Shown here piece after piece: positions 36,089-50,350 of a stretch of 64,000 nucleotides of DNA. The stretch's first letter is position 1. Every line of letters begins with the position of its first letter. The stretch covers positions 1,302,001 through 1,366,000 of the forward strand of contig SAXG01000002.1 in NCBI GenBank assembly GCA_012932865.1, in the 5' to 3' direction. Below the pieces are notes generated by a model. It ran no database searches, had not been told where the DNA came from, and was given only the letters and a program-made list of their open reading frames with translations. The position numbers and the translations under genes are program-made. Source of the DNA: Amylostereum areolatum. Its lineage: Eukaryota; Basidiomycota; Agaricomycetes; Russulales; Stereaceae.

Positions 36089-39000
36089 ATGACGACCCAG
36101 GTCAAGGCATTCGTTCGACCATGTCTCAATGCAGGCCACAGCTCCAACACCCCCAATGTCATTCGTTCTCTTCCGGAGCTCATCGAGTTCAATGCGCAAC
36201 ACAACTCTGAACATGTTTTTGGCGCACAGATGCGCTCAGGAAATGGCCCCTCGCAGTGGCTGCGTATGACTTTCTCGGACCTTCAAACCGCTGCCGAGCG
36301 TGCATCTGCCTGGCTCATGCAATGTGGAGCAACAAGGGAAAGGCTGAGCAGAGATAAATCAGTGCCACCGGTCGCCATCTTCCTGGGAAGCGACATCACC
36401 ATCTTCTTATACATGGCAGCACTTCTACGCATTGGGACCCCAGTGAGTCAGAGTCCATTGAAATTATTGCCAGGCCCTTTCGCTAAGCCTCCTCAGGTTC
36501 TACTGTTATCAGCGAGGCTGACGCCATTAGCTATCGTCCATCTCATTAAAGCAACCTCTCCTTCCACTGTTCTCATCAGTGCACAAACATCCAGGACCGC
36601 CAAGGAGACTAATCTGCTCCTGGATTCCCCTAGCCCATTATTTCTGAATACCTTAAGTTACGACAGATTTTTTGACAAGCCTAATCTCCCATCCCTGGAT
36701 TTTCCGATCCCTCCAGCATATACTGGGTTTCATTATGGCGATTTGGACGCTATCATCATGCATTCTTCGGGGACGACAGGGCTTCCGAAGCCTATTTACC
36801 ACGCTCATGCTTACCTTCTGAGTTACGCGGCTTGTCATCGCATTCCTGAGCAGCCGGACTCGCTCGACTTCAACGTTTCCACACTACCCCTCTATCATGT
36901 TTGTTGATCGTCATTTTCTTTGATATCGCTTTGACCGATTCATCCATCAGGGCTTTGGTCTTCTCGCCCCATCGTTATCCCTATCAATTGGAATGCCTTT
37001 TGTTCTTCCCTCGGCATCTGCCATACCTACGGCCCGCTCTACCATTGCAAGCCTGGAACTCACTGGCGCTCGTTCGATGTTCTCAGTCCCTTCTATACTC
37101 GAAGACATTGTCCGGCTTCCCGACGGTGCAGGTATCGAGGTACTGCAGAAGCTCGACTTCATCGCCATCGGAGGCGCGCCTATGAAAGAATCTGTAGCAC
37201 TCACCCTGGCCTCCAACGGTGTCAACCTGCTCAATCATTGGGGTATGTCATTGTTTTCTCGTCTAGTGTTCTTAGCATAGTAACGTGGTCACACCCTGCA
37301 GGCGCAACTGAAATCGGCGCTATTGCACCCATACAACGGCCCCCACCAGGTTATGATTTTCACTATCTCATTCCGCGTGACGACATAGGGCTTCAAATCG
37401 TGCCCGTCGCAGACACGGAGCGTACGTTCCGACTCATCGGCCAAGCACCAGGCTGGAAAGAGCCGTTTGAGGTGCAAGATCTCCTCGAGGCGCACCCACA
37501 TGATCCGACGCAATTCAGGATCCTCGGACGCACTGACGACCTCATTGTGCTTGGCACCGGGGAAAAGGTGCGGCCCTCGAACATGGAACACGCTGTGTCC
37601 GAGCATCCCAACGTCAAAGCCGCTCTCGTCTTCGGAGATGGACAGTTCTCCCTGGGCTTGCTCGTTGAGCTCCAAGTTCATGACATCGATGTGGCCCGCG
37701 ACGCCCTCGTGGCCTCCATCGATCCCTTCCTAGTCCGCGGAAATAGGCTCATGGACAAGCACGCGAAGATAACGAAAGATATGCTCGTGTTCACCTATGC
37801 AGACGTGAAGCCCCTCATACGCACCGATAAAGGCAGCCTCGCGCGCAAAGAGACGTTCGCAGCCTTTGACCAGGAAATCAAAGCTTGCTATTATCATGCC
37901 GAAGTTTCCCCTTCCGACCCTTTCCCACTCCCCACTGCTGAATCCGGCGAGGCGCTTTCACGGGCGCTCCGCGCACTCGTCGCCTCAATGCTGAATGTCA
38001 CGCATCTCAGCGACGATGCCGATTTTTTCGAGGCAGGCATGGATAGCTTGCAAGCGGCGCGCCTCCGACGGGCCATTCTCAATGGACTTCGTGCTACCCC
38101 TGACCTCCCGACGCCGATCAACGATTTGGAACCCGATTTCGTGTTCGAGAACTCCTCCTTCAGCAAGCTGCTCCAGAGCGTAAGTCAAGGTCATGGATGG
38201 AAATATCGTCAGTAAAAGCGAGCACCGTCTAGAAGGGAGGCGGGTTCAAGAGATGGAGGAGATTGTCATGGCGTACTCAGAGGAGCTTATGTCTTACGCG
38301 TCCCATGCTGAGCGCGCACACGAGGCTCGACGCAAGAGTACCCACACCAACGGCGAGAAAAACGAAGGAACGTGTTGTACTCCTCACCGGATCAACCGGA
38401 AGCCTGGGTTGTATGCTTTTAGCACGAATCGCTATGGATTCCGAGCATCAAGAAAGTCATATGTCTGAGCAGGGCACAGGAGGGCTTTGCAGATGTGCTT
38501 GCACGTCAGAAGGAGACAATGAAGCAACGCGGGGCCGTGCTTGAGAGCACAGCGTGGACGAAGGTCTCCGTCTTCGAATCTGACATGAGTCGTGCCGACT
38601 TTGGGCTATCGCACGACCACTTCCAGGAGGTGTGTAATATGCTTATCGCACGCACTTTGGGTTTCTTTTGACACTCACGCCTTTGAACTAGCTACTGGAC
38701 GTGACCCACATCGTTCACAATGCGTGGCCAATGAACTTCAATCGTACTCTCACCTCTTTCAGTGCACACATCAAGGCGTTGTGTCACCTCATCAGGCTGG
38801 CCTTACTCAGCGTCGTCGCGTACCCATCCAAAACGTCCGCACGACGCATCCTCTTCTCCTCGTCCATCGCTGTTGTAGGCCGTTTTCCTTTATTACATCC
38901 AGGTCCAGTGCCAGAGGACCCACAGCCTGCCGACGCGACTGCCGACTTCGGGTACCCTGAAGCAAAATGGGTCTGCGAGCGGCTACTGCAAACGGCAACG

Positions 39001-39640
39001 GCGCTGTACGGCAAGAGCGAAGAGGGCACATCGCCGCTGCTCGCAACGTCGAGTGTGCGTATTGGGCAGATGACGGGCCCCGAGGGCTCAGGCGTGTGGA
39101 ACGAAAACGAGCATTTCCCCCTCATTGTGCGCGCCTCTCAAAAAATCAACGCGGTTCCCGAACTTCACGGTGTGCGTCTCGTCTGCTTTCCTCTTGACAA
39201 TGTCCACGGGCTGACGCATGCTCGTGATCCAGTCTTTGTCGTGGATGCCTGTCAACCGTGCAGCGGCAGTGATCTCCGAACTGCTCTTCTCCAAGCCCTT
39301 TAGACCCATGTACCACCTCGAGAACCCCAGTCGACAGCCCTTGGGCCCTGTCCTCGACGACTTCGCCTATCTCCTTGGCGGCCTTCCCTCGTCTCCCTTT
39401 CAATCAGTGGCTCGGACCAAGTGCGCGCGCTCGGCTCCGATCCCCGAAACCAACCCTGCACACGGCATCCTCGTCTTCTTGGAAAAGGACTTCGTCCGGA
39501 TGGCTGCAGGCTCTGTGGTGTTGGGGACAAACAAGGCGCGAGAAGACTCTGCCACGATGCGGACGAGCGGAGCGTTGGAGAGGTGGCATCTGGCAGAGTA
39601 TGTTACGTATTGGAAGAGTGTGAGTGCGTGGAAAGGTTAA
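36089..39640 (+). CDS. Adenylate-forming reductase (A-T-R, NRPS-like carboxylic acid reductase), frame interrupted
   Basis: Seven exons: 36089-36442, 36497-36898, 36951-37242, 37302-38179, 38223-38629, 38692-39171 and 39233-39640. The adenylation domain (about residues 20-520) has the AMP-binding loop H-S-S-G-T-T-G-L-P-K-P, then G-A-T-E-I-G and R-T-D-D. The thiolation domain carries its phosphopantetheine serine in F-F-E-A-G-M-D-S-L-Q. The reductase domain has the NADPH loop L-L-T-G-S-T-G-S-L-G and the Tyr-x3-Lys pair in G-Y-P-E-A-K. There is no condensation domain, so the enzyme should activate a carboxylic acid and release it as the aldehyde. Extra single bases appear at 38357-38361 (A-run), about 38445-38450, and more than once near 39395-39470. 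The divergent PKS next door suggests its aromatic acid as substrate; that is inference. Confidence 0.88.
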
Positions 39641-40769
39641 TAGGAATGTATAGCCTGCGTGCACAAGTGGCAATTATACATCGCCTCAGCTCGCTGTGGT
39701 GCCAGGACTTCAAAGTCATGCAACTATACGCCGTCGTCTCGAGTTTGTTCAGGGCCGATTGCTGGATGGCGTTCCCAGGGATTTGAAGGTCACTCAACAT
39801 AGTTTCTCGGTATCACACTATAGACACAGGTCACAGTCGTCAATCGGGATCCCATGGACAGCGATGATCGCTCTGGGTATATCTAGCGCCCACAAGCTCC
39901 GAGGCTGCGTTCGATCCGAAACAAGAGTGTGGCACGGTATGATTTCTCCTTCAAGTCACATTTTCCGCACATTTAACGCAATTTTAGACAAGACAAAGGC
40001 ACCTTGAAAAGTACCTCAATACATACTTACCCGTGGCGGCAGGCCTCGTTGCAGAGGAACCCGAACCTCTCTGGACTCCAGTAGGTACATACGTTGCCCT
40101 CTCGATTGCTCGGGATGGCCACGGATCTGATATTAACTTCTTTGCTCCGCTCTCTTTGCGCCGGCACGATGGTATCTGCTCCATGTTGCTCTAAATCGCG
40201 AGCAGCAAGTCGTGCGGCGACTCGTGGATCCTACGATTGGACCCGATAACCAACCAGGCGCTCCGACATCAATACCATCCTAAACACATTGTATCCCGCA
40301 TCCACTGCGCCCGTCTTCTATGAACTCGATTTCAATAGGGACGGGCTTATGTTGTCGCGATCTGTGCTCTCGTGTTCTAGGCGAGGCAGATGGTGTCGGC
40401 GCTCCTGGAGATGGTCTTCGCGATACACGAGTTCGGGGAGCTATCGCGGCTCGACATGTTCCTCTATTTTCTCGCACTATCACACCCGCAAAGTTCTGGC
40501 GGCGGAGCAGTCCAATTGTGGATTCATTATCACCGGCACATACACAGTCGCTGTACAATCTAGTCGAAGCAATCCGCCTCCAACTTAGGATGGAGTATCA
40601 TGTCTTACTCCCCGCCCCCAAAGTACCTTGTGCGGGGACACGACCGCATCCTCATGTTGAAGAAGGGTCGTGTAACACAACAACCTCCGCACTTCTAGCA
40701 CTATATAAAGTCTGGCACAACAGTCGACCCAACTCCAACTTCCTTTCCTTCGCGCGCATTACCATAACC
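39641..40769. other. Intergenic region upstream of DM9-vWA gene 1
   Basis: No gene is supported. From about 40070 it becomes the first copy of a segment repeated upstream of the second DM9-vWA gene. The core promoter sits at its right end. Confidence 0.5.
40702..40710 (+). promoter_or_regulatory. TATA box of DM9-vWA gene 1
   Basis: TATATAAAG 60 bases before the ATG. The same nine bases, followed by a similar TCTGGCAC/TCTAGCAC block, stand before the second copy, so the core promoter was duplicated and kept. Confidence 0.65.
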
Positions 40770-42598
40770 ATGGCTTACCGCGCTAACCCACAGTATATGC
40801 CATCCCCTGTGTCCACGACCACATATGGCCCTTCCTCAAGCGTCTACGGCGGTCTCCGCCCCGAGATTTATCCCCAAGCCCCAGCAAACTATTATGCCAT
40901 TCCTCCTCGTGTTTCCCCTCAAGCTTCTCCCGTCTTCAGTAGCTCCCCGCCAGCCCCTGTCGCCGCCGCCCTCAAGGTACCCCGCACACTCCTTCAGTGG
41001 ACTAACAATGCCAAGGAAACAACATATGAAGTACAGAGGAATGGGTCCACGTCTCCATTCGCTTGGGTGAGTTGTTCTTTGTCACTCTGCGCATTACGGG
41101 ATCGCTCATATCTGGACAGATCTTTGTTGAAGGTAACGATATTCCCCCGAACGCCATCGTTGGAGGCGACGACCGTGGCCGCCCTCTTTACATCGCTCGA
41201 ACCTTCTATGAGGTATGGATCTTCTCTCGCCTTGCTTCTATCTTGGCCTTATGTTGTCTGTTCTAGGGTGGTATCCGTAAGTATACGTCCGATCACATCC
41301 AAGTTTATCTGATCTTCTGCGTCTTTCAGAGATCGGGAAGGCCGGGAGGCACTTGAGGCTGGGCGCCGCAGTGTCATACAACGGTCGTGAAATTGACGTA
41401 GGATTCAGTAAATTTTCTATATCGGGGCTTCTGACTATTTACAACAGGTTCCATCGTACGAAGTTCTGGTTGAATTGAACTCCCAACCTCGCTGGGTCTA
41501 CCAACCATCGGGGGGCGCTGTTGAGATGCCTGCCGCCGGTGTCGGGCTCCGTCCTACCAGTCCCCGCGCTCTTCTTGAGCAGCGTCTGAAGTACGTCGCT
41601 TCTCTTCTGCGCTCTGTACCGCTTGATCTAAATCCCCGATAATTATAATATGAACATGTAGGGAATTCAAAACGGTCATCATTGTCGACGATTCCTTGTC
41701 GGTATGTGCAAAGTTCATTTCGCGCAATGTCGTGGCATCTAAATGACGACCTATAGATGGCAGGCCAAGCGTGGACCGATGCTAAGGAGGCTCTCGCTGG
41801 CGTCGCCGAGATGACGAGGAACTATGGTGCAGACGGCCTGGACATATATTTCTTGAATGATTTCCGCTCCCGCATTGACGTGAAGGTTCGTGTCGTACTG
41901 TTTCGACTCGAGGGATTGTGCCTTATGTCACTGCCCATAGGACCGTCAAGCTGTTCGGAGTTTATTCGAGGTGGTTGCCCCTGAAGGTATGTTCCCCTCT
42001 ATGTTTTATGTTGTAGATCTCGACATGGGTTATACCAGGGCAAACCCCGACGGGCAAGAAACTCGACGAGGTTCTCAAGCTCTACATTCCCAGGCTCGAG
42101 GATCGCAGGATCCAGCAGAAGCCGATCAGTATCATCGTCATTACGGATGGTGTTCCAAGTACGTGGAGTCCATTCCATACTACTCGACCACTGCTTGACG
42201 GACCTACGACCAGCCGATGATCCCGAGGAAGTTATCATTCATGCTGCTCGTCGCCTCGACGCCAGCGGCGTCCCCTCGCGCATGTTGGGGATCCAGTTCG
42301 TTCAAATTGGGGACGACCTCCATGCGACGGAAGCCCTTCGCCAGCTCGATGACGACCTCGCTCACACGCACGGCATCAGGGTTCGTCTGCAATATCATTT
42401 CGCCTTCTTTGAACGATTACTCACTATTTTCCTTCGCTGCAGGATATGGTGGATACGACGTTGTTCAACCCGAACGACCCGCTCTTCGGCACTGAGACGA
42501 TGATCAAGATATTAATGGGCTCGATGCATCACGCTTTGGACAACGAAGTCAGCTCCCCCCCTCCCGCTGTGCAGCCGTGGGGTGCCCCACTTATCTAA
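40770..42598 (+). CDS. DM9 repeat (DUF3421) plus von Willebrand factor A domain protein, copy 1
   Basis: Eleven exons fit one unbroken frame: 40770-41066, 41120-41212, 41267-41276, 41330-41397, 41448-41590, 41662-41701, 41757-41885, 41941-41986, 42039-42158, 42214-42380 and 42443-42598, 422 residues. Residues 1-75 are a Pro/Tyr/Ser-rich tail. A DM9-like domain follows: I-P-P-N-A-I-V-G-G-D-D, then P-L-Y-I-A-R, then I-G-K-A-G, then Y-E-V-L-V-E. The vWA domain starts near residue 215 with the MIDAS motif D-D-S-L-S (D-x-S-x-S), its threonine in T-P-T-G-K-K, and the aspartate in V-I-T-D-G-V-P, so metal binding looks intact. DM9 proteins in animals bind sugars; vWA domains bind protein ligands through Mg2+. 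There is no signal peptide, so it is probably cytosolic. Its role in fungi is unknown to me. The third exon is only 10 nt. Confidence 0.85.
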
Positions 42599-44142
42599 GG
42601 TTCGAGTAGATTCTCCTCCCTTCCACACGCTTCGAGTAGTCGCACTCTCCGTTCCATTTGGATGCAACCCCTTCTGCTTTGACTCCTCCACATTACCATA
42701 GCATCATAACATGTTTGTGTACTATATGCCTCTGTATTGTTTCATTTTCGATATCCTTGCTACCAGTGCTGGCGCTATCCGGCTCGTGCTCTCATTATGT
42801 GATGAGACTTGCCCATCAATGTCCCGGAGCACCACTTAGCTTTGTGTGGGATCACTGCGAGCGGCCCACTGGGATAATGTGACGGGATCTTGTTGCAAAT
42901 TCGCTCGTGGGAGTGGCGCCAGCTCTCCCGGCCCTGTATTATAGCAATATCATTAGCATGACTCCCAAAGGGATGGTTTAGTAGCTTCATTCTGTCAGAC
43001 TGCCGTGTTCTATAGACGGGTACCACCGTACCAGAAATTCAACATATCATGCCGCGCCGTAGTCCTGGGCCGACCCAGTCTGCCGGCGTCTGCCCGTTCA
43101 ACGTTCAGATTTCTGTCGGGGGCTTTTAACGGACTCAGCGGACTCGGCTGCACCCCCCCCAACGTCATCGGACGACGGACTCTATCACAGACATTTCCAA
43201 GTTCACAGACGTTAGCCCAGGCTATCCCATCCATGGATAGTGAAAATTCCTCAGGATAGATTCCGCTCACGGCTGCACAAGAATCCGAACTATAGCAGAG
43301 GCATGCTTCTTTCTTCAAGTGACGGTATACTAATTCATTTTCCAGCATACTAACACGCGGGTTCAGACAAAGTAAAAGGCGCTCCCGCCCTCGAGCTTGC
43401 CATATATGTACTGTCCGCAGAAGCGAGAATTCTTCAAAGGAATCCCGCACGTCAGTACGTATGTTGCCATCTCTATTGCTCGGATGGCCACGTATCTGAT
43501 ATCAACACCTTTGCTCCACCCTCTTTGTATGATATCTACTCCGTTCTCTTCCAAATCGCGCACAGGAATTCGTACGAGGCCTATGATTGGACGTGATAAA
43601 CGACGAGGCGCTCTGACGCGTCATGAAGGGCAATGCCATCCCGAACTTCGCATTGTATTCTCGATCCACGCGCTCCCATTTCAATGAATCAGGTCTCAAT
43701 GCGGAATGGGCTCGTGTTTCTACGATGCGTTCTTTTGTGCCACAGGCGAGGCAGATGGCGCCTGCGATCTTGGAGATGGCCTTCGCGATACACGAGTTTG
43801 GGGGCCCACTGTCGTGACTCATTTTGTCGCTCTGTCTTCTCGCCTGGCTCTGGATTCTGGAATACGGAGCGCCGAATCATGGATTTATCAGGCAGTGTAC
43901 CAGAGTTGCAGCACCGTGTAGCCGGGGTGACTCGGACCTAGACTGGCTTGGGCGTCGGATCGCTACCTTCCGCCCCTCAACTACGTTGTTGTCACTCGTG
44001 CGAAGACACAACCATATCTTCATGTTGGAACCGGTGGTGGAACACAAGAGTCAACACTTCTGCGTTATATAAAGTCTAGCACGACAGTCGGGTCAAACCC
44101 AGCGTCAGCTTCCCTTCACTCCTTCCACGCAATACTACAGTC
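42599..44142. other. Intergenic region between the two DM9-vWA genes
   Basis: The left 800 bases are unique and show nothing I recognise. From about 43450 the sequence repeats the block found upstream of gene 1. A 64-codon plus-strand open frame at 43623-43817 spans the best conserved part but is not open in the same way in copy 1, so I do not call a gene. Confidence 0.5.
44066..44074 (+). promoter_or_regulatory. TATA box of DM9-vWA gene 2
   Basis: TATATAAAG 69 bases before the ATG at 44143, identical to the element before copy 1. Confidence 0.65.
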
Positions 44143-45797
44143 ATGGCTTACCGTCAGGGGCCAGGAAACCAGTACGGGACCCTCCCTCGTCTGTCTCCTC
44201 CCTCAGCCCCCCACAAGGTACCGAAAACACTCAAACAGTGGATCAACGACGCCAAGGAAACGACAGATGAAGTACAGAAGAATGGATCTACGTCTCCATT
44301 CGCTTGGGTGTGTTGCTCTTTGCTGCTCCTTGCTGCGTAATAGCGTCTCTCATTCTGGGACAGGTCTTCGTCGAAGGAACCGATATTCCGCCGAATGCTA
44401 TCGTCGGAGGCGACGATCGTGGGCGGCCTCTTTACATTGCACGAGCTTTCTATGAGGTACGAGCTTTTCCGCTCCTTCGCTCCCCATGACCTCACGTTTT
44501 CTGTTCTAGGGTGGCCTCCGTAAGTATACGCCCGATTTAGTTCAATCCGTGTTTTACATTCTCGATCTTTCAGAGCTCGGGGAAGGCCGGGAAACACTTG
44601 AAGTCGGGCGCCGCAGTGTTCTATCACAGTCGTGAAATTGACGTAGGATCTTATGCGCCCTCCGCGTCGATTCCCTCTGACCGTCTTATAGGTCCCAGCA
44701 TACGAAGTCCTGGTTGAATTGAACGCCCCGTCTCGCTGGGTGTACCAACCGTCATCAGGCGCCGTTGAAATGCCTGTCGCGGTGGTTGCGCCCCGCTCGC
44801 AAGCTCTTCTTGAGCAACGCTTCAAGTATACTGTTTCTCTTCAGTGCCTCTCATCACTTGACCCAATCACCGACATCTTTGATATCTAGGGAATTCAAAA
44901 CGGTTATCATCGTGGACGATTCCCTGTCGGTATGTACAACATTTCCGCCATCAAGCTAGGCCCTCTTGTTGACGGACTCTAGATGGAAGGTCAATCGTGG
45001 ATCGATGCTAGGGAGGCTCTCGCTGGAGTCGCCGAAATGACGAGGAACTACGGTGCAGATGGCCTGGATATATACTTCCTAAACGATTCCCGTTTCCGTC
45101 TTGATGTGAAGGTTCGTGCCGCAGTGCCTTGATTTGACTCAGGATCCTATCTTATGCAACCACTCATAGGATCGTGGAACAGTCCAGACCTTGTTCGGGA
45201 TAGTTTCCCCTGAGGGTAAATTTCCCTCTACGCTATCAGTTGTAGAAGTTTTGACATATCTCATGCCAGGTCAAACCCCGACGGGAAAAAAGCTTGACGA
45301 GCTTTTCAACCGCTACATCCCCAAGCTCGAGGATCGTAATGTCCAGCAGAAACCGATCAGTATCATTGTTATCACGGATGGCGTTCCAAGTAAGTCTCAC
45401 ATTGCCAATGCCTCTGAGTCCATGGTTGACGCGTTTGCGGACAGCCGATGACCCCGAGGAAGTCATCATCAAAACCGCGCGCCGCCTCGACGACAGCGGT
45501 GTCCCCTCGCGCATGTTGGGCATTCAGTTCGTCCAAATCGGCGACGACCCCAATGCGACGGATGCCCTACGCGAGCTCGACGACGACCTCGCTCACAAAC
45601 ACGGCATCAGGGTCCGTCTCACCCATCGTTTAGTCCTCCTTGCACATTACTCACGCAGTATCTCGTTGCAGGATATGGTGGATACGACGTTGTTTAACCC
45701 GAACGACCCTCTCTTCGGCACTGAAACCATGGTCAAGATCCTGATGGGCTCGATGCAGCACGCTTTGGACAACGAAGTTGGCCCTCCCCCTGTTTAG
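44143..45797 (+). CDS. DM9 repeat plus von Willebrand factor A domain protein, copy 2, one frame break
   Basis: Eleven exons match copy 1: 44143-44307, 44364-44456, 44510-44519, 44574-44642, 44692-44825, 44890-44929, 44983-45111, 45170-45215, 45270-45389, 45445-45611 and 45672-45797, about 365 residues. The Pro/Tyr-rich N-terminal tail of copy 1 is mostly missing. The DM9 part has I-P-P-N-A-I-V-G-G-D-D and P-L-Y-I-A-R-A-F-Y-E. The vWA part keeps D-D-S-L-S, T-P-T-G-K-K and V-I-T-D-G-V-P, so the metal site is complete. Exon 4 is 69 nt against 68 in copy 1: the G-run at about 44579-44582 has one extra G that breaks the frame. The exon is otherwise closely conserved, so an assembly error is likely; if real, this copy is inactive. 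Confidence 0.82.
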
Positions 45798-46598: not shown

Positions 46599-49500
46599 AT
46601 GTCTTCCCATAATGTCTCGCGAAGTCCCGACATCGACGAGAAGACTCGGTCCTACGATGTGGAGTCTATGCATGTATCCAACCCGGAGACAAGTACTGAA
46701 TTCTACAATGCCAATCTCGACAGGGTGCAGCGGAAGCTCAATGGACGGCATATGCAGATGTGCGTGGCGTTCTCAAGTTTGTCCCCAGTGCAACTGACCT
46801 ATCCCTCTTGTGTGGCTTGCCTCTGTTAATGCCTATCAGGTTCGCGGTGCGTACTGCTTCTCCTCGATGTTTTCGCGAACCTGACTATTATACCTGCAGA
46901 TTGGCACGGTGATTGGCACGGGTCTTTTCCTTGGGATGGGCCAGCTCCTCGCCGTCGCTGGTCCCCTCGGCGCTCTCCTCGTCTTCATTCATGTCGGCGG
47001 TGTAGGGTACGCGTGAGTGATGTCCGACCATCGCATCGTCGCTGTGTTCGACGCCTGCCTTCTGTAGGTCTCTTGCGTCCATTACGGAGATGGCAACATT
47101 CGCTCCCGTGTCTGGTTCCATGTCTCACTACGGTGCGTACGCCTGCGGTTCAGCGCCACTCGACCAATTGCTCACACTACTTCCGCTTGTTTACACAGCG
47201 GCACGTTGGGTGGATCCAGCGCTTGGTTTTGCGGTACGTTCCTAGTGTACGCCACATTTTTAGTCCCTGACTAGACTGTTCCTAGGTTGGCTGGGTACGA
47301 GCTCGCTCTTCCGACTCCTTACATCATACCTCACCTCTGTGCCCGACCTTCGCAGAACTATTTCTACGTGAGTGGTCGTGTGATACCCCAGGAAACCCGC
47401 GAGGGGGCTTATCCGGTTCTTTAGACATGCGCTATCACCCTCCCGGCTGAAATCACGGCAGCCGCAGTGCTCATCGGTTACTGGGACTCTAACGTATGTG
47501 CACTGTAATCATACTTACGCATACGACCTTCTTCCTGAAGAAATGAGTAGGCGGACCATGTGGCGATCTACATTGCTGTCTTCATTCTGGTGGCGTATGC
47601 TGTCAATCTAATCGGAGCTAGGTGAACATTCTCCTTTCAGGTATAGCGACTCACGCTGATACTGGTGGCAGGACGTTCGGAAACAGTACGTTGAGCCTCT
47701 TGTCACCAGATACCTTGGTTGACGGAAGGTTGATTAGCTGAGATCGTTTTTTCTACTTTGAAGTGTGCGTTCAAGTTCATGCCTATAGAAAGCAATGTTC
47801 TTTGCTGATCTCATTCTTCAGTGATGCTCGTAGCTGGCCTCGTACGTTGTTGGTAGACACTCCGTTCCTTGTTATCCATGACCTTGAATTCTCTTTCCTC
47901 TCGCAGATCATCGGCGGTCTTGCAATCAACCTGGGAGGGGGCCCTGATCACGAACGGTACGTCACATTCAATTTTTCTGTTCCGAGTACATGGACACCCA
48001 TACGATGACAGGCACGGGTTCCAAGTGAGTGGCGTGGAAACGCGATTATAATGATTGCTCACAGCACCTAGTACTGGAAAAACCCTGGCCCGTTTGTGTC
48101 GTGTAAGTTATGCTCAACATCCTGTGCCATGTGCCTTAGATACTAAAGTCTGTGGATATGAAGCTCTTGAGCCGGGCGCGCGGGGGCGCTGGATAGGCTT
48201 GTTGCTAGCAGTCATCCCTGCGGCCTTTTCCATGAACGGGATGGAGATTCTCACTCTGTACGCTGGTGCCGCCTACCGGAGCCTATAGATCATCAACCTG
48301 AATTTTTTTCAATCCCCTCCTAGCGCCGCGGCAGAGACTCGCAATCCCCGGAAGAACCTGATTATCTCGATGAGGACGGTCTTCTTCCGCATCTTCGTCT
48401 GCTATGTGAGTGTTTAGAGAGGGCGCAGCCATGTGACCAAGAGATTGACGCCTCCCTGGGAGATTCTCACAACACTTGTGGTGGGAATGCTCATTCCGTC
48501 GGCGGATCCAGCTCTACTCAGGTAAATATTCCTCGCGACCGATTTCGCGCACTTCTATCTAGGTTAACTTGATCATGCTTGTAGGAAAACGGGCAATGCT
48601 GCCCAATCGCCCTTCGTCCTCGTTTTTGAACGCGCCGGCGTCAAAGGTTCGTGTGCATCCACTAATAATTCATCCTTTCTAACCCTCTAATCTCCAGTTC
48701 TCCCGCATATCGTGAATGCTGTGGTTATGACCAGCGCGCTTTCTTCAGGAAATGGCATGTTGTACTGCTCGTCGCGTATGCTCTTCTCCCTTGGTATACA
48801 GGGTCATGCACCAAAGATCGTCGCCCGCGTTAACCGCGATGGCCTTCCATATGTTGCTATCATGGTTTCAGTGCGTAGTCCCCTCCTAAAGTGTCCGTCC
48901 CGGGCCCAATAGACTATCTAGGGGTTATTCTCTTTCCTCGCGTTCTTGAACGTCAACAACGACGGTGGAACTGTCTTCACGTATGTGTAAACCTTCTGAT
49001 GGTATCCCAGGGCGCTGATAACTGCTTGCTTCAGATGGTTCGCAAGCCTTTGTGAGCCACTTACAGTGCCATAATGGAAAGTTTTACTCACCTTATCCGT
49101 CCCTTAGCCGCTGTTGGTGGTCTGCTCAAGTACGTCTCCCACAAGGTCTCGAAATTCATCAGGAACTTACTCTATCCATCATAGCTGGCTATCTATCGGT
49201 ATCACCTATCTACGATATTGTACGTGAAGTCTTTTGCTGGCGCATGTCCCTTCGTCTACTGAGCTTTCCCTTCAGATTATGGGTTGAAAAAACAAGGCCT
49301 AGCTCGTTCCAGCTTCGATGGAATCTATCGACCTCATATCCAGCCCTTTGCTTCGCTTTGGGTAATATTTTGGTACACCGCTAATTTCAGGCTAGGATCT
49401 CGAACTAAAGATAACATCGCAGGTCCACATTCTTCATCCTCGTCAGCGGCCTCTCTATCTTCTGGAAATTTGATGGCTCTGACTTTGTTGCTGCCTGTAA

Positions 49501-49843
49501 GCATTGAAACCACCCTTCCGTGACTCCCGCTTATTCGTTTTCGTGACAGACATCAACATCCCTATATTTGTGATGTTATACTCTGGGTGGAAAATCTGGA
49601 AGAGAACTAAGATCGTGCGCCATTCTTGACCAGTGTGCCCATGTTTTCTCTGAAGTCTTATTACATCCGCAGATTCCTCTAGCTGACCTTGACTTCGTCA
49701 CTGTACGTCCTTCCGGAGTCTTCCATGCGAGCCTGCGGTCTGATGATGGTCTTCTTCAGGGCATTCCTTCTGTGGAGGAAACTGAGGAGACAGGCACCGT
49801 GGAAAAGGCTCACGGGCGCAAACAAGTTAGGCAATGGATGTAA
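46599..49843 (+). CDS. Amino-acid permease (APC superfamily, yeast amino-acid transporter family)
   Basis: A many-exon gene whose first exons are 46599-46759, 46840-46846 (7 nt), 46900-47012 and 47068-47132. Splicing yields the family start: R-H-M-Q-M-F-A-I-G-T-V-I-G-T-G-L-F-L-G at the end of a hydrophilic N-terminus, then E-M-A-T-F-A-P-V-S-G-S. Later blocks are A-A-A-E-T-R-N-P-R-K-N, S-S-G-N-G-M-L-Y-C-S-S-R and W-L-S-I-G-I-T-Y-L-R-Y. About twelve hydrophobic segments are expected from the family, and most can be seen. It should import amino acids by proton symport at the plasma membrane; which ones cannot be told. The C-terminus is hydrophilic and acidic, ending at the TAA at 49841. I found no frame break. 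Confidence 0.88.
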
Positions 49844-50350
49844 TAATTATAGTTGCAAGTCTATTTTGCACACCAGTCTATCTCGTACGCCCCCCCGCAC
49901 TCTACCCCGTTGGTGTAATCACGCTTTGCCTATGTTTTCATGCTCTTCGATGCTCTTAGCCCCACGACCTGGGGTGCTGTTCCAAATGAACTGCATGTGC
50001 AATACGCATGGTCAGCCTCAGAGTTATGTATTAGATACTAGAGTCGGAAAGTTTTGCAGACTTGCAGTACTAGCTTTTACTTATCTGTATGTACCACGTA
50101 CAGTGTCTATGTGCATTGTACACAGTACAAGACCCATTACCCGAAGCCCGTCGAAGGATTCCCATTTGCTCTGATAATGATTCTAATTCTCAATTGAGGA
50201 TTTCTCATTCTGATTCTACCTCTGGAAGACTGGAATCTGGATCCGGAGTCTGTAGTTGTACTGTAAGTCTGTAAGTCTGTAACAAGTCTTAACTTTTAAC
50301 TTTTAAGATGGTAGCTGACAAAGGCAACCTGGTTGGGAAAAAATTATATG
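49844..50350. other. Intergenic region with short tandem repeats before the tRNA
   Basis: No coding gene is seen. Around 50258-50282 the unit TGTAAGTC is repeated, followed by AACTTTTAACTTTT near 50290-50305. The A/T-rich run TTATATG ends just outside the tRNA 3' end. Confidence 0.4.

What the first reader, a model, noticed from the sequence alone, without database searches (positions are those of the whole stretch)
40770..45797. DM9-vWA fusion proteins in tandem
A DM9 (DUF3421) domain, known in animals as a sugar-binding and immune-related module, is fused to a vWA domain with a complete MIDAS metal site. Lectin-like recognition joined to an adhesive protein-binding domain, in a cytosolic fungal protein without a signal peptide, has no role I know of. 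It could act in recognition of damaged membranes, foreign sugars or self/non-self. Tandem duplication hints at ongoing selection. This is my best candidate for an undescribed system in the window.
Basis: partly seen in the sequence, partly recalled or inferred. Interest (0 to 1): 0.75.

Follow-up and report, generated by a model that had tools for sequence, protein, structure and literature searches.

The report
Fungal sugar-binding DM9–vWA fusion genes
Two neighbouring genes of a wood-decay fungus encode proteins that join half of an animal-type mannose-binding lectin to a metal-dependent protein-binding domain; the fusion is old and widespread in mushroom-forming fungi, and relatives of its binding domain in other fungi carry membrane-anchor signals or, in a few cases, cell-death-type enzymes instead of the lectin.

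Summary
Window 40770-42598 and 44143-45797 (+) hold two 11-exon genes encoding a P-rich tail, a helix, one DM9 repeat and a vWA domain with full MIDAS. Copy 2 is frame-shifted as assembled; an otherwise identical intact Amylostereum chailletii protein is recorded. The fusion occurs in 132 of 289 collected relatives and, in a vWA tree, arose once. Mannose-site residues of oyster DM9 lectins are mostly kept (Asp/Glu22, Lys43 and Glu59 in 97 of 132), but only one of the two repeats that form the site is present. Related vWA-only proteins carry a myristoylation-type start (77 of 120) and PPxY (97 of 120); DM9 forms neither (0 of 104). In five ascomycete records a caspase-like domain and/or an α/β-hydrolase precedes the same vWA. 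Best reading: a cytosolic lectin-guided adaptor, DM9 choosing the place (mannose-type glycans normally hidden from the cytosol), vWA recruiting a partner. Main rivals: a non-sugar scaffold, or a stored defence lectin. Selection on the pair is purifying (dN/dS 0.16-0.19). Function is inferred, not shown.

The parts
40702..40709 (+). TATA-box-like element of gene 1, 68 bases before its ATG
   Evidence: pattern only; a matching element stands before gene 2
40770..42598 (+). gene 1: DM9-vWA fusion, 422 aa, 11 exons (40770-41066, 41120-41212, 41267-41276, 41330-41397, 41448-41590, 41662-41701, 41757-41885, 41941-41986, 42039-42158, 42214-42380, 42443-42598)
   Evidence: exon layout by hand from GT-AG sites and the open frame, no transcript data
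40989..41063 (+). gene 1 pre-DM9 helix region (residues 74-98)
   Evidence: a similar stretch stands before a DM9 domain at C1 in the same genome
41064..41471 (+). gene 1 single DM9 repeat (residues 99-164), over exons 1-5; Asp117, Lys137, Glu154 stand at the mannose-binding positions Asp22, Lys43, Glu59 of oyster CGL1
41663..42526 (+). gene 1 vWA domain (residues 205-399) with MIDAS Asp213, Ser215, Ser217, Thr280, Asp312
44066..44073 (+). TATA-box-like element of gene 2, 77 bases before its ATG
44143..45797 (+). gene 2: tandem copy, same 11-exon layout; shifted frame in exon 4 as assembled; 362 aa if the micro-exon is left out
44305..44715 (+). gene 2 DM9 repeat (interrupted by the frame difference)
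44891..45755 (+). gene 2 vWA domain with complete MIDAS
40085..40438 (+). upstream stretch, about 70% identical to 43455-43803: the duplicated unit includes some 700 bases of upstream DNA

Best explanation
A cytosolic, lectin-guided adaptor or receptor. SHOWN (by sequence and prediction): one DM9 repeat joined to a MIDAS vWA domain, a fusion inherited once in mushroom-forming fungi; the window pair is under purifying selection. SHOWN: related vWA proteins have other modules in the N-terminal place (a myristoylation-type start plus PPxY tail in many; a caspase-like domain and/or alpha/beta-hydrolase in a few Ascomycota). INFERRED: the N-terminal module decides where or how the shared vWA domain acts. 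INFERRED: two DM9 repeats pair in a homodimer, completing mannose-type sites that oyster lectins make from two repeats of one chain. INFERRED: as the protein has no visible export signal, the sugar is met in the cytosol, most likely high-mannose N-glycans of vacuole, ER or plasma membrane laid bare by rupture, or an invader's wall; binding gathers the proteins there and the vWA domain captures an acidic peptide of a partner that repairs the membrane, seals the compartment or starts cell death. It would work like cytosolic galectins at damaged endomembranes, with another fold and another sugar.
For: Fusion and domains. Wide and single origin: 132 of 289; one group, SH-aLRT 97, 39 rows: 37 with DM9 and 2 short or partial records without. 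Sugar residues: 81 of 132 have Asp22, Lys43 and Glu59 exactly, 97 of 132 with Glu allowed for Asp22, and an aromatic at site 55 in 124 of 132; D22A and K43A abolish mannose binding in the oyster protein (PMC5712788, passages). MIDAS complete in 129 of 132 fusions. Exchanged N-terminal module: myristoylation-type start 77 of 120 against 0 of 104, PPxY 97 of 120 against 0 of 104; PPxY in 98 of 131 vWA-only tails against a shuffled mean of 5.7. At least 14 named species have a protein of each form (names and Pfam columns). Cell-death-type partners: in P0277 caspase PF00656 at 2.1e-5, above its cut-off, and the bacterial EACC1-associated caspase family at 2.5e-8, below its cut-off; in P0276 an alpha/beta-hydrolase (Pfam just below cut-off; fold matches of a low-confidence model). 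SesB-like hydrolases are common effector domains of fungal NLR receptors (PMC4986451, PMC12258605, passages).
Against: No binding, localisation, expression or phenotype data. Sugar-site residues are not more conserved than the structural core (Glu59 ranks 10, Lys43 20, Asp22 25 of 65 columns), and the stacking His52 is not kept, so site retention may be mere inheritance. One repeat alone cannot make the oyster site; dimerisation is untested. Effector-vWA proteins are few here (five records named as Ascomycota, two of them of Neurospora crassa, and one HNH-vWA, among 289) and far from the fungus in question; in P0277 the serine of the hydrolase motif reads glycine (by eye), so that part may be inactive. 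No ESCRT (P[ST]AP) or LIR motif enrichment in the DM9 tails.
Confidence: 0.37

Rival explanations
1. DM9 here is a protein-binding or dimerisation module without sugar binding, like the lectin fold of the het-B protein that recognises a protein partner, or the DM9-like half of nematode MFP2; the fusion is an ordinary intracellular scaffold.
For: Only one of the two repeats needed for the oyster site is present; His52 is not kept; the site columns are no more conserved than the core; [quoted passage not shown] twin DM9 resembles half of MFP2 (PMC3110756, passages).
Against: Asp/Glu22, Lys43 and Glu59 all kept in 97 of 132.
Confidence: 0.25
2. Defence chimerolectin: the protein is stored in the cytosol and acts only when a nematode, insect or mite eats the hypha; DM9 binds gut glycans and vWA is a second binding or effector part.
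For: Cytosolic lectins without signal peptides serve this end in mushrooms, including multi-domain ones such as CCTX2 and MOA (PMC13324453, passages; further titles in the listing). The oyster DM9 lectin binds high-mannose glycans (PMC4932603, passages and abstract start). Amylostereum lives with woodwasps and their nematodes (recalled).
Against: I know of no toxic vWA domain (recalled). In the window pair the vWA part changes more slowly than DM9 (dN 0.08 against 0.13), and related vWA domains carry membrane-anchor signals. The main text of one C. cinerea armoury paper, searched for vWA and DM9 terms, has none (PMC4082614).
Confidence: 0.22
3. Housekeeping ubiquitin or trafficking adaptor like copines, RGLG or Vwa1: the vWA family helps a ubiquitin ligase at membranes, and DM9 merely replaced the myristoyl/PPxY tail as the docking device.
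For: RGLG2, BON1 copine and Rpn10 are among the vWA fold matches; PPxY is the usual docking motif of Nedd4/Rsp5 ligases (recalled); NPF motifs are also enriched in vWA-only tails (23 of 131, shuffled mean 2.0), which suits membrane traffic (recalled); a cytosolic vWA protein works with an F-box protein in Dictyostelium (PMC10539598, outline and section 22).
Against: Many vWA folds match equally well; the DM9 forms lack PPxY (0 of 104; the looser [LP]PxY in 6 of 104).
Confidence: 0.14
4. Artefact: two separate genes merged by a wrong exon reading.
For: Exons were joined without transcript data.
Against: Same fusion in 132 database proteins, DM9 before vWA in 132 of 132, and matching introns in both window copies.
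Confidence: 0.02

Closest known systems
Oyster DM9 lectins CGL1 / CgDM9CP-1 (N-type, 'oyster lectin' class)
   Same: DM9 repeat with Asp22, Lys43, Glu59 and an aromatic at site 55
   Different: two DM9 repeats and nothing else in the oyster protein; here one repeat plus a vWA domain; His52 not kept
Fungal 'oyster lectins' of the MycoLec survey (PMC8227253)
   Same: the class was predicted to be widespread in Agaricomycetes; these proteins may well be among those counted
   Different: the passages and term searches of the main text that I saw do not mention a vWA partner; supplements not seen
Fungal vWA-only proteins (e.g. P0114 Paramarasmius, P0098 Rhizoctonia)
   Same: related vWA domain (P0114 44-57% identical by exon to the window genes), MIDAS complete in 151 of 157
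   Different: in most, a myristoylation-type start and PPxY tail instead of DM9
Plant copine BON1 and RGLG2
   Same: intracellular MIDAS vWA fold; membrane-docked (recalled)
   Different: C2 or RING partners, no DM9; fold match only
Fungal NLR receptors with SesB-like or caspase-like effectors
   Same: exchangeable N-terminal domain on a constant core is the shared plan; alpha/beta-hydrolase and caspase-like domains occur in both
   Different: no NACHT or NB-ARC domain in the proteins scanned; the vWA stands where the NOD would be
Cytosolic galectins at damaged endomembranes
   Same: proposed way of working
   Different: other fold, other sugar; no homology claimed

Membership tests
DM9 (PF11901) domain family | profile score above the curated cut-off | tested here: met
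   gene 1 56.6 bits, gene 2 (micro-exon left out) 46.8 bits, cut-off 26.2
DM9 mannose lectins (CGL1/CgDM9CP-1) | two DM9 repeats forming the site between them | tested here: not met
   one repeat of 66 residues in gene 1 by alignment to CGL1 and by the model built here; Pfam, whose model is longer than one repeat, lists two stretches for gene 1. A second repeat hit in 2 of 132 relatives, one of them partial. A homodimer could replace it; not testable here
DM9 mannose lectins (CGL1/CgDM9CP-1) | Asp22 and Lys43 (essential), Glu59 | tested here: met
   Asp117, Lys137, Glu154 of gene 1
DM9 mannose lectins (CGL1/CgDM9CP-1) | measured mannose binding | not testable with these tools
   needs purified protein
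vWA with MIDAS | DxSxS...T...D and vWA fold | tested here: met
   129 of 132 fusions complete
Copine / RGLG | C2 or RING domain beside a copine-type vWA | tested here: not met
   no C2, RING or Copine domain listed for gene 1 or gene 2; Copine only 17.5 bits against a cut-off of 27 in P0016
Fungal NLR | NACHT or NB-ARC domain | tested here: not met
   none in Pfam scans of the two window proteins and eight relatives
Cytosolic fungal defence lectins | no signal peptide | tested here: met
   crude hydropathy test: no 12-residue stretch above 1.8 in the first 45 residues of gene 1, P0001 or 100 relatives; no dedicated predictor was run
Cytosolic fungal defence lectins | toxicity to or induction by grazers | not testable with these tools
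   needs assays

The most novel reading that the evidence does not exclude
Fungi have a NOD-free family of intracellular conflict proteins built on a constant C-terminal MIDAS vWA domain with an exchangeable N-terminal module (mannose-type DM9 lectin, myristoyl/PPxY anchor, caspase-like, alpha/beta-hydrolase, HNH nuclease), parallel to NLRs and to the bacterial vWA- and EACC1-caspase conflict systems; the DM9 form is the sensor arm of mushroom-forming fungi and reads exposed glycans inside the cell.
Probability: 0.22. Interest if true: 0.82.

Novelty: new variant of a known kind. Interest (0 to 1): 0.5.

Why it matters
Some NLR effector types common in Ascomycota are almost missing (SesB-like) or missing (PUP) from basidiomycete NLRs (PMC9815663, passages), so how mushroom cells sense damage and intruders is open. 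A conserved cytosolic lectin fused to an adaptor domain, with a related form that looks tied to membranes, is a concrete and quickly testable candidate. It would also show that DM9, studied as an animal immune lectin, has an intracellular role in fungi, and give the many 'VWFA domain-containing' hypothetical proteins of fungi a first framework.

Tried and rejected
Merged-gene artefact: rejected. Ongoing diversifying selection: not supported for this pair; dN 0.113 and dS 0.70 (NG86), 0.117 and 0.615 (YN00), 362 codons, gene 2 read without its micro-exon; vWA part 0.08/0.63, helix+DM9 part 0.13/0.58 (NG86). The aligned N-terminal tail (24 codons) changes faster in both classes. No selection test was made beyond this pair. 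Gene 2 as an old pseudogene: unlikely, as the frame is otherwise open, substitutions fall mainly on third positions (41, 40, 122), and an intact protein identical outside the site is recorded.

Motifs in DM9 tails (92 tails, 100 shuffles): P[ST]AP 0 (mean 2.5), LIR 32 (37.1), SH3-type 7 and 8 (10.3 and 9.7), NPF 1 (1.0), PPxY 0 (9.0): none enriched; QQ (29, shuffle maximum 24) and SSP (35, maximum 31) lie above their shuffles and were not pursued. A vWA-only paralogue in this genome: none in an exon-wise search with P0114 that did find the window genes. A Pfam VWA search found one other locus, ITIH/VIT-like by eye, and missed the window genes, so its silence means little. Allelic copy of the locus: none found, although another DM9 locus is present twice (C172 and C56). 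A bacterial promoter scan: of no use here.

Structure of the ascomycete relative P0276: low confidence (mean pLDDT 60.3, five sequences); its matches to vWA and α/β-hydrolases are supporting only. The RRM-like segment near its start is my reading by eye, with no significant hit (P0277: E 1.3 at best). The DM9 part of the fusion was not searched alone by fold; the fold lists are filled by vWA, so the case for DM9 rests on sequence and Pfam. NCBIfam and PADLOC on P0001 and P0114 gave nothing above a cut-off (one NCBIfam match of P0001 at 16.5 bits against 551.65); PADLOC's DUF626_VIII matched P0276 at 1.8e-6, meaning not checked.

Biases: the 289 proteins are the listed rows of three searches (120 of 410, 120 of 982, 112 of 112; in the first two only about 8,000 candidates were scored), the second begun from a protein with a myristoylation-type start, so 77 of 120 and 97 of 120 are not a census of vWA-only proteins; these counts leave out rows without a starting Met or with a tail under 40 residues. 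The tree used 80 of the 289, picked by me mainly for having names, plus window gene 1, and the quick method. A first, regex-based sorting of the proteins missed many DM9 domains and was replaced.

Not in print: searches for DM9 with von Willebrand and fungi; DUF3421 with fung; DM9 domain with basidiomycete; vWA with basidiomycete and domain architecture; von Willebrand with heterokaryon incompatibility; VWFA domain, Agaricomycetes, DUF3421, lectin and tandem gave no listed paper whose title or abstract start describes this fusion; long lists were cut to 20 of 111 and 10 of 61, the library holds open-licence papers only, and supplements were not read.


Full report
What is there. On the + strand, 40770-42598 and 44143-45797 hold two genes with the same 11-exon layout, ten short GT-AG introns each (49-71 bases) and one 10-base micro-exon. 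Gene 1 encodes 422 residues: a P/Y-rich tail (1-73), a helix (from 74), one DM9 repeat (99-164), a linker and a vWA domain (205-399). Gene 2 has a shorter tail. Its exon 4 is one base longer than that of gene 1, so the frame is lost after the micro-exon unless that exon is skipped. A recorded protein of Amylostereum chailletii (P0001, 365 aa) is identical to gene 2 outside that spot, so intact copies exist and the window genome is that species or a very close one. The two copies share 79% of 362 aligned residues, introns are 62% identical, and dN/dS is 0.16 (NG86) to 0.19 (YN00). The duplicated unit includes some 700 bases of upstream DNA, and each gene has a TATA-like element 68-77 bases before its ATG.

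How widespread. Of the 120 best listed database relatives of gene 1, 81 carry Pfam DM9. Pooling three searches, 132 of 289 proteins have both domains by models built here and 157 have vWA alone; DM9 stands before vWA in 132 of 132. In a tree of 81 vWA domains (80 of the 289 plus gene 1) the 37 DM9 rows and two short or partial records without DM9 fall in one supported group (SH-aLRT 97; quick method, no bootstrap); three label changes are needed against 27.1 in shuffles. Its genera are of Russulales, Polyporales, Atheliales, Agaricales and Boletales (orders recalled). So the fusion most likely arose once and is old; the window pair is a later duplication. Other species have several copies: Collybia nuda three, all listed with the same 57,339-base contig length, and Amanita rubescens two with consecutive gene numbers.

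The exchanged N-terminal module. Among proteins that start with Met and have a tail of 40 residues or more, 77 of 120 vWA-only proteins begin with a myristoylation-type sequence and 97 of 120 contain PPxY; of 104 DM9 proteins none has either (2 of 104 begin with MG without fitting the pattern, and 6 of 104 have the looser [LP]PxY). In a second count PPxY stands in 98 of 131 vWA-only tails against a shuffled mean of 5.7, and in 0 of 92 DM9 tails against 9.0; NPF is also enriched in vWA-only tails (23 of 131 against 2.0). Forty-one of the 120 vWA-only proteins do not start with MG. At least 14 named species have a protein of each form (for example Collybia nuda, Amanita inopinata, Daedalea quercina, Gyrodon lividus; names), so these are parallel paralogues. 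The window's genome shows no vWA-only paralogue in a search that recovers the window genes. The sample is biased, as told under Tried and rejected.

More distant relatives. Five records named as Ascomycota have the same vWA at the C-terminus. P0277 (Trapelia) has a caspase-like domain: PF00656 at 2.1e-5, above its cut-off, and the bacterial EACC1-associated caspase family at 2.5e-8, below its cut-off. P0276 (Candelina) has an α/β-hydrolase: Pfam just below cut-off, a GHSLGG motif by eye, and hydrolase matches from a low-confidence model. P0277, P0278, P0279 and P0286 share invariant columns with it over that part, but in P0277 the motif's serine reads glycine, and Pfam gave P0278 no family and P0286 only a weak one. 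One basidiomycete record, P0172, has an HNH nuclease domain (34.6 bits, cut-off 21); two others (P0269, P0270) carry PCI or transporter domains and look like merged gene models. SesB-like hydrolases are among the commonest N-terminal effector domains of fungal NLRs (PMC4986451, PMC12258605; passages), and caspase-like CHAT proteases act in fungal cell death (PMC12881547; passages). A figure legend in PMC12881547 also lists a vWA domain among Podospora NLR parts. EACC1-caspase pairs and vWA proteins are core parts of bacterial conflict systems (PMC7159879; passages). Together these hint that this vWA family belongs to conflict or cell-death biology, but the sample is small.

Sugar binding. In the oyster protein D22A and K43A abolish mannose binding (PMC5712788; passages); Glu59 also contacts mannose, and the site draws residues from both DM9 repeats (PMC4932603; passages). 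Gene 1 has Asp117, Lys137 and Glu154 at these places. Across 132 fusions, 81 have Asp, Lys and Glu exactly, 97 with Glu allowed for Asp22, and 124 an aromatic at site 55. Against: His52 is lost, and by column conservation the three rank only 25, 20 and 10 of 65. With one repeat per chain a complete site needs a second chain; I propose a homodimer, which would give two equal sites and place two vWA domains side by side. This is inference.

Most likely working. DM9 is the address part and vWA the recruiting part. Without a visible export signal, the protein would meet mannose-rich glycans only where a membrane has broken or a foreign cell has entered; clustering there would gather the vWA partner. 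Cytosolic galectins act at damaged lysosomes in animals (abstract starts seen in the listing). The rivals, in order, are a non-sugar scaffold, a stored defence lectin against grazers, and a ubiquitin or trafficking adaptor; see the fields above.

Novelty. DM9 in Agaricomycetes is reported as 'oyster lectin' (PMC8227253; passages), and DUF3421 as a likely oyster lectin (PMC7778903; passages). I found no paper describing the DM9-vWA fusion, its single origin or the exchange with myristoyl/PPxY tails (open-licence library only, listings cut). I rate it a new variant of a known kind, with real but unproven interest.

Noticed in passing
G000 C172:1178312-1178638 (L001) and C56:854368-854694 (L002): Another DM9 gene, with a charged/P-rich tail and no vWA in the frame seen, present as two near-identical copies on different contigs: the assembly may hold some haplotype pairs, though the window locus is found once.
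   Followed up: partly
G000 C1:703945-704560 (L003, L021): A third DM9 locus; a nearby frame resembles a chitin-type carbohydrate-binding module (CBM_5_12, 21.0 bits, under its cut-off of 26.2), and the stretch before DM9 resembles the helix of the window genes (39% identity to gene 1 over residues 74-135): perhaps another sugar-binding DM9 combination. Exons were not joined.
   Followed up: partly
window 40085-40438 and 43455-43803: Upstream DNA of the two genes is about 70% alike, more than their introns (62%); shared control elements or a worn gene remnant.
   Followed up: no
database proteins P0280, P0283, P0289: A separate basidiomycete vWA branch (long branch) with an N-terminal region of about 190 residues that has no Pfam hit in the two scanned, P0283 and P0289.
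   Followed up: no
window 46600-49860 and 36900-39600: By eye, downstream a many-intron amino-acid permease, upstream an NRPS-like adenylation/reductase gene; no family search was run on them. Neither suggests a functional cluster with the DM9-vWA pair.
   Followed up: no
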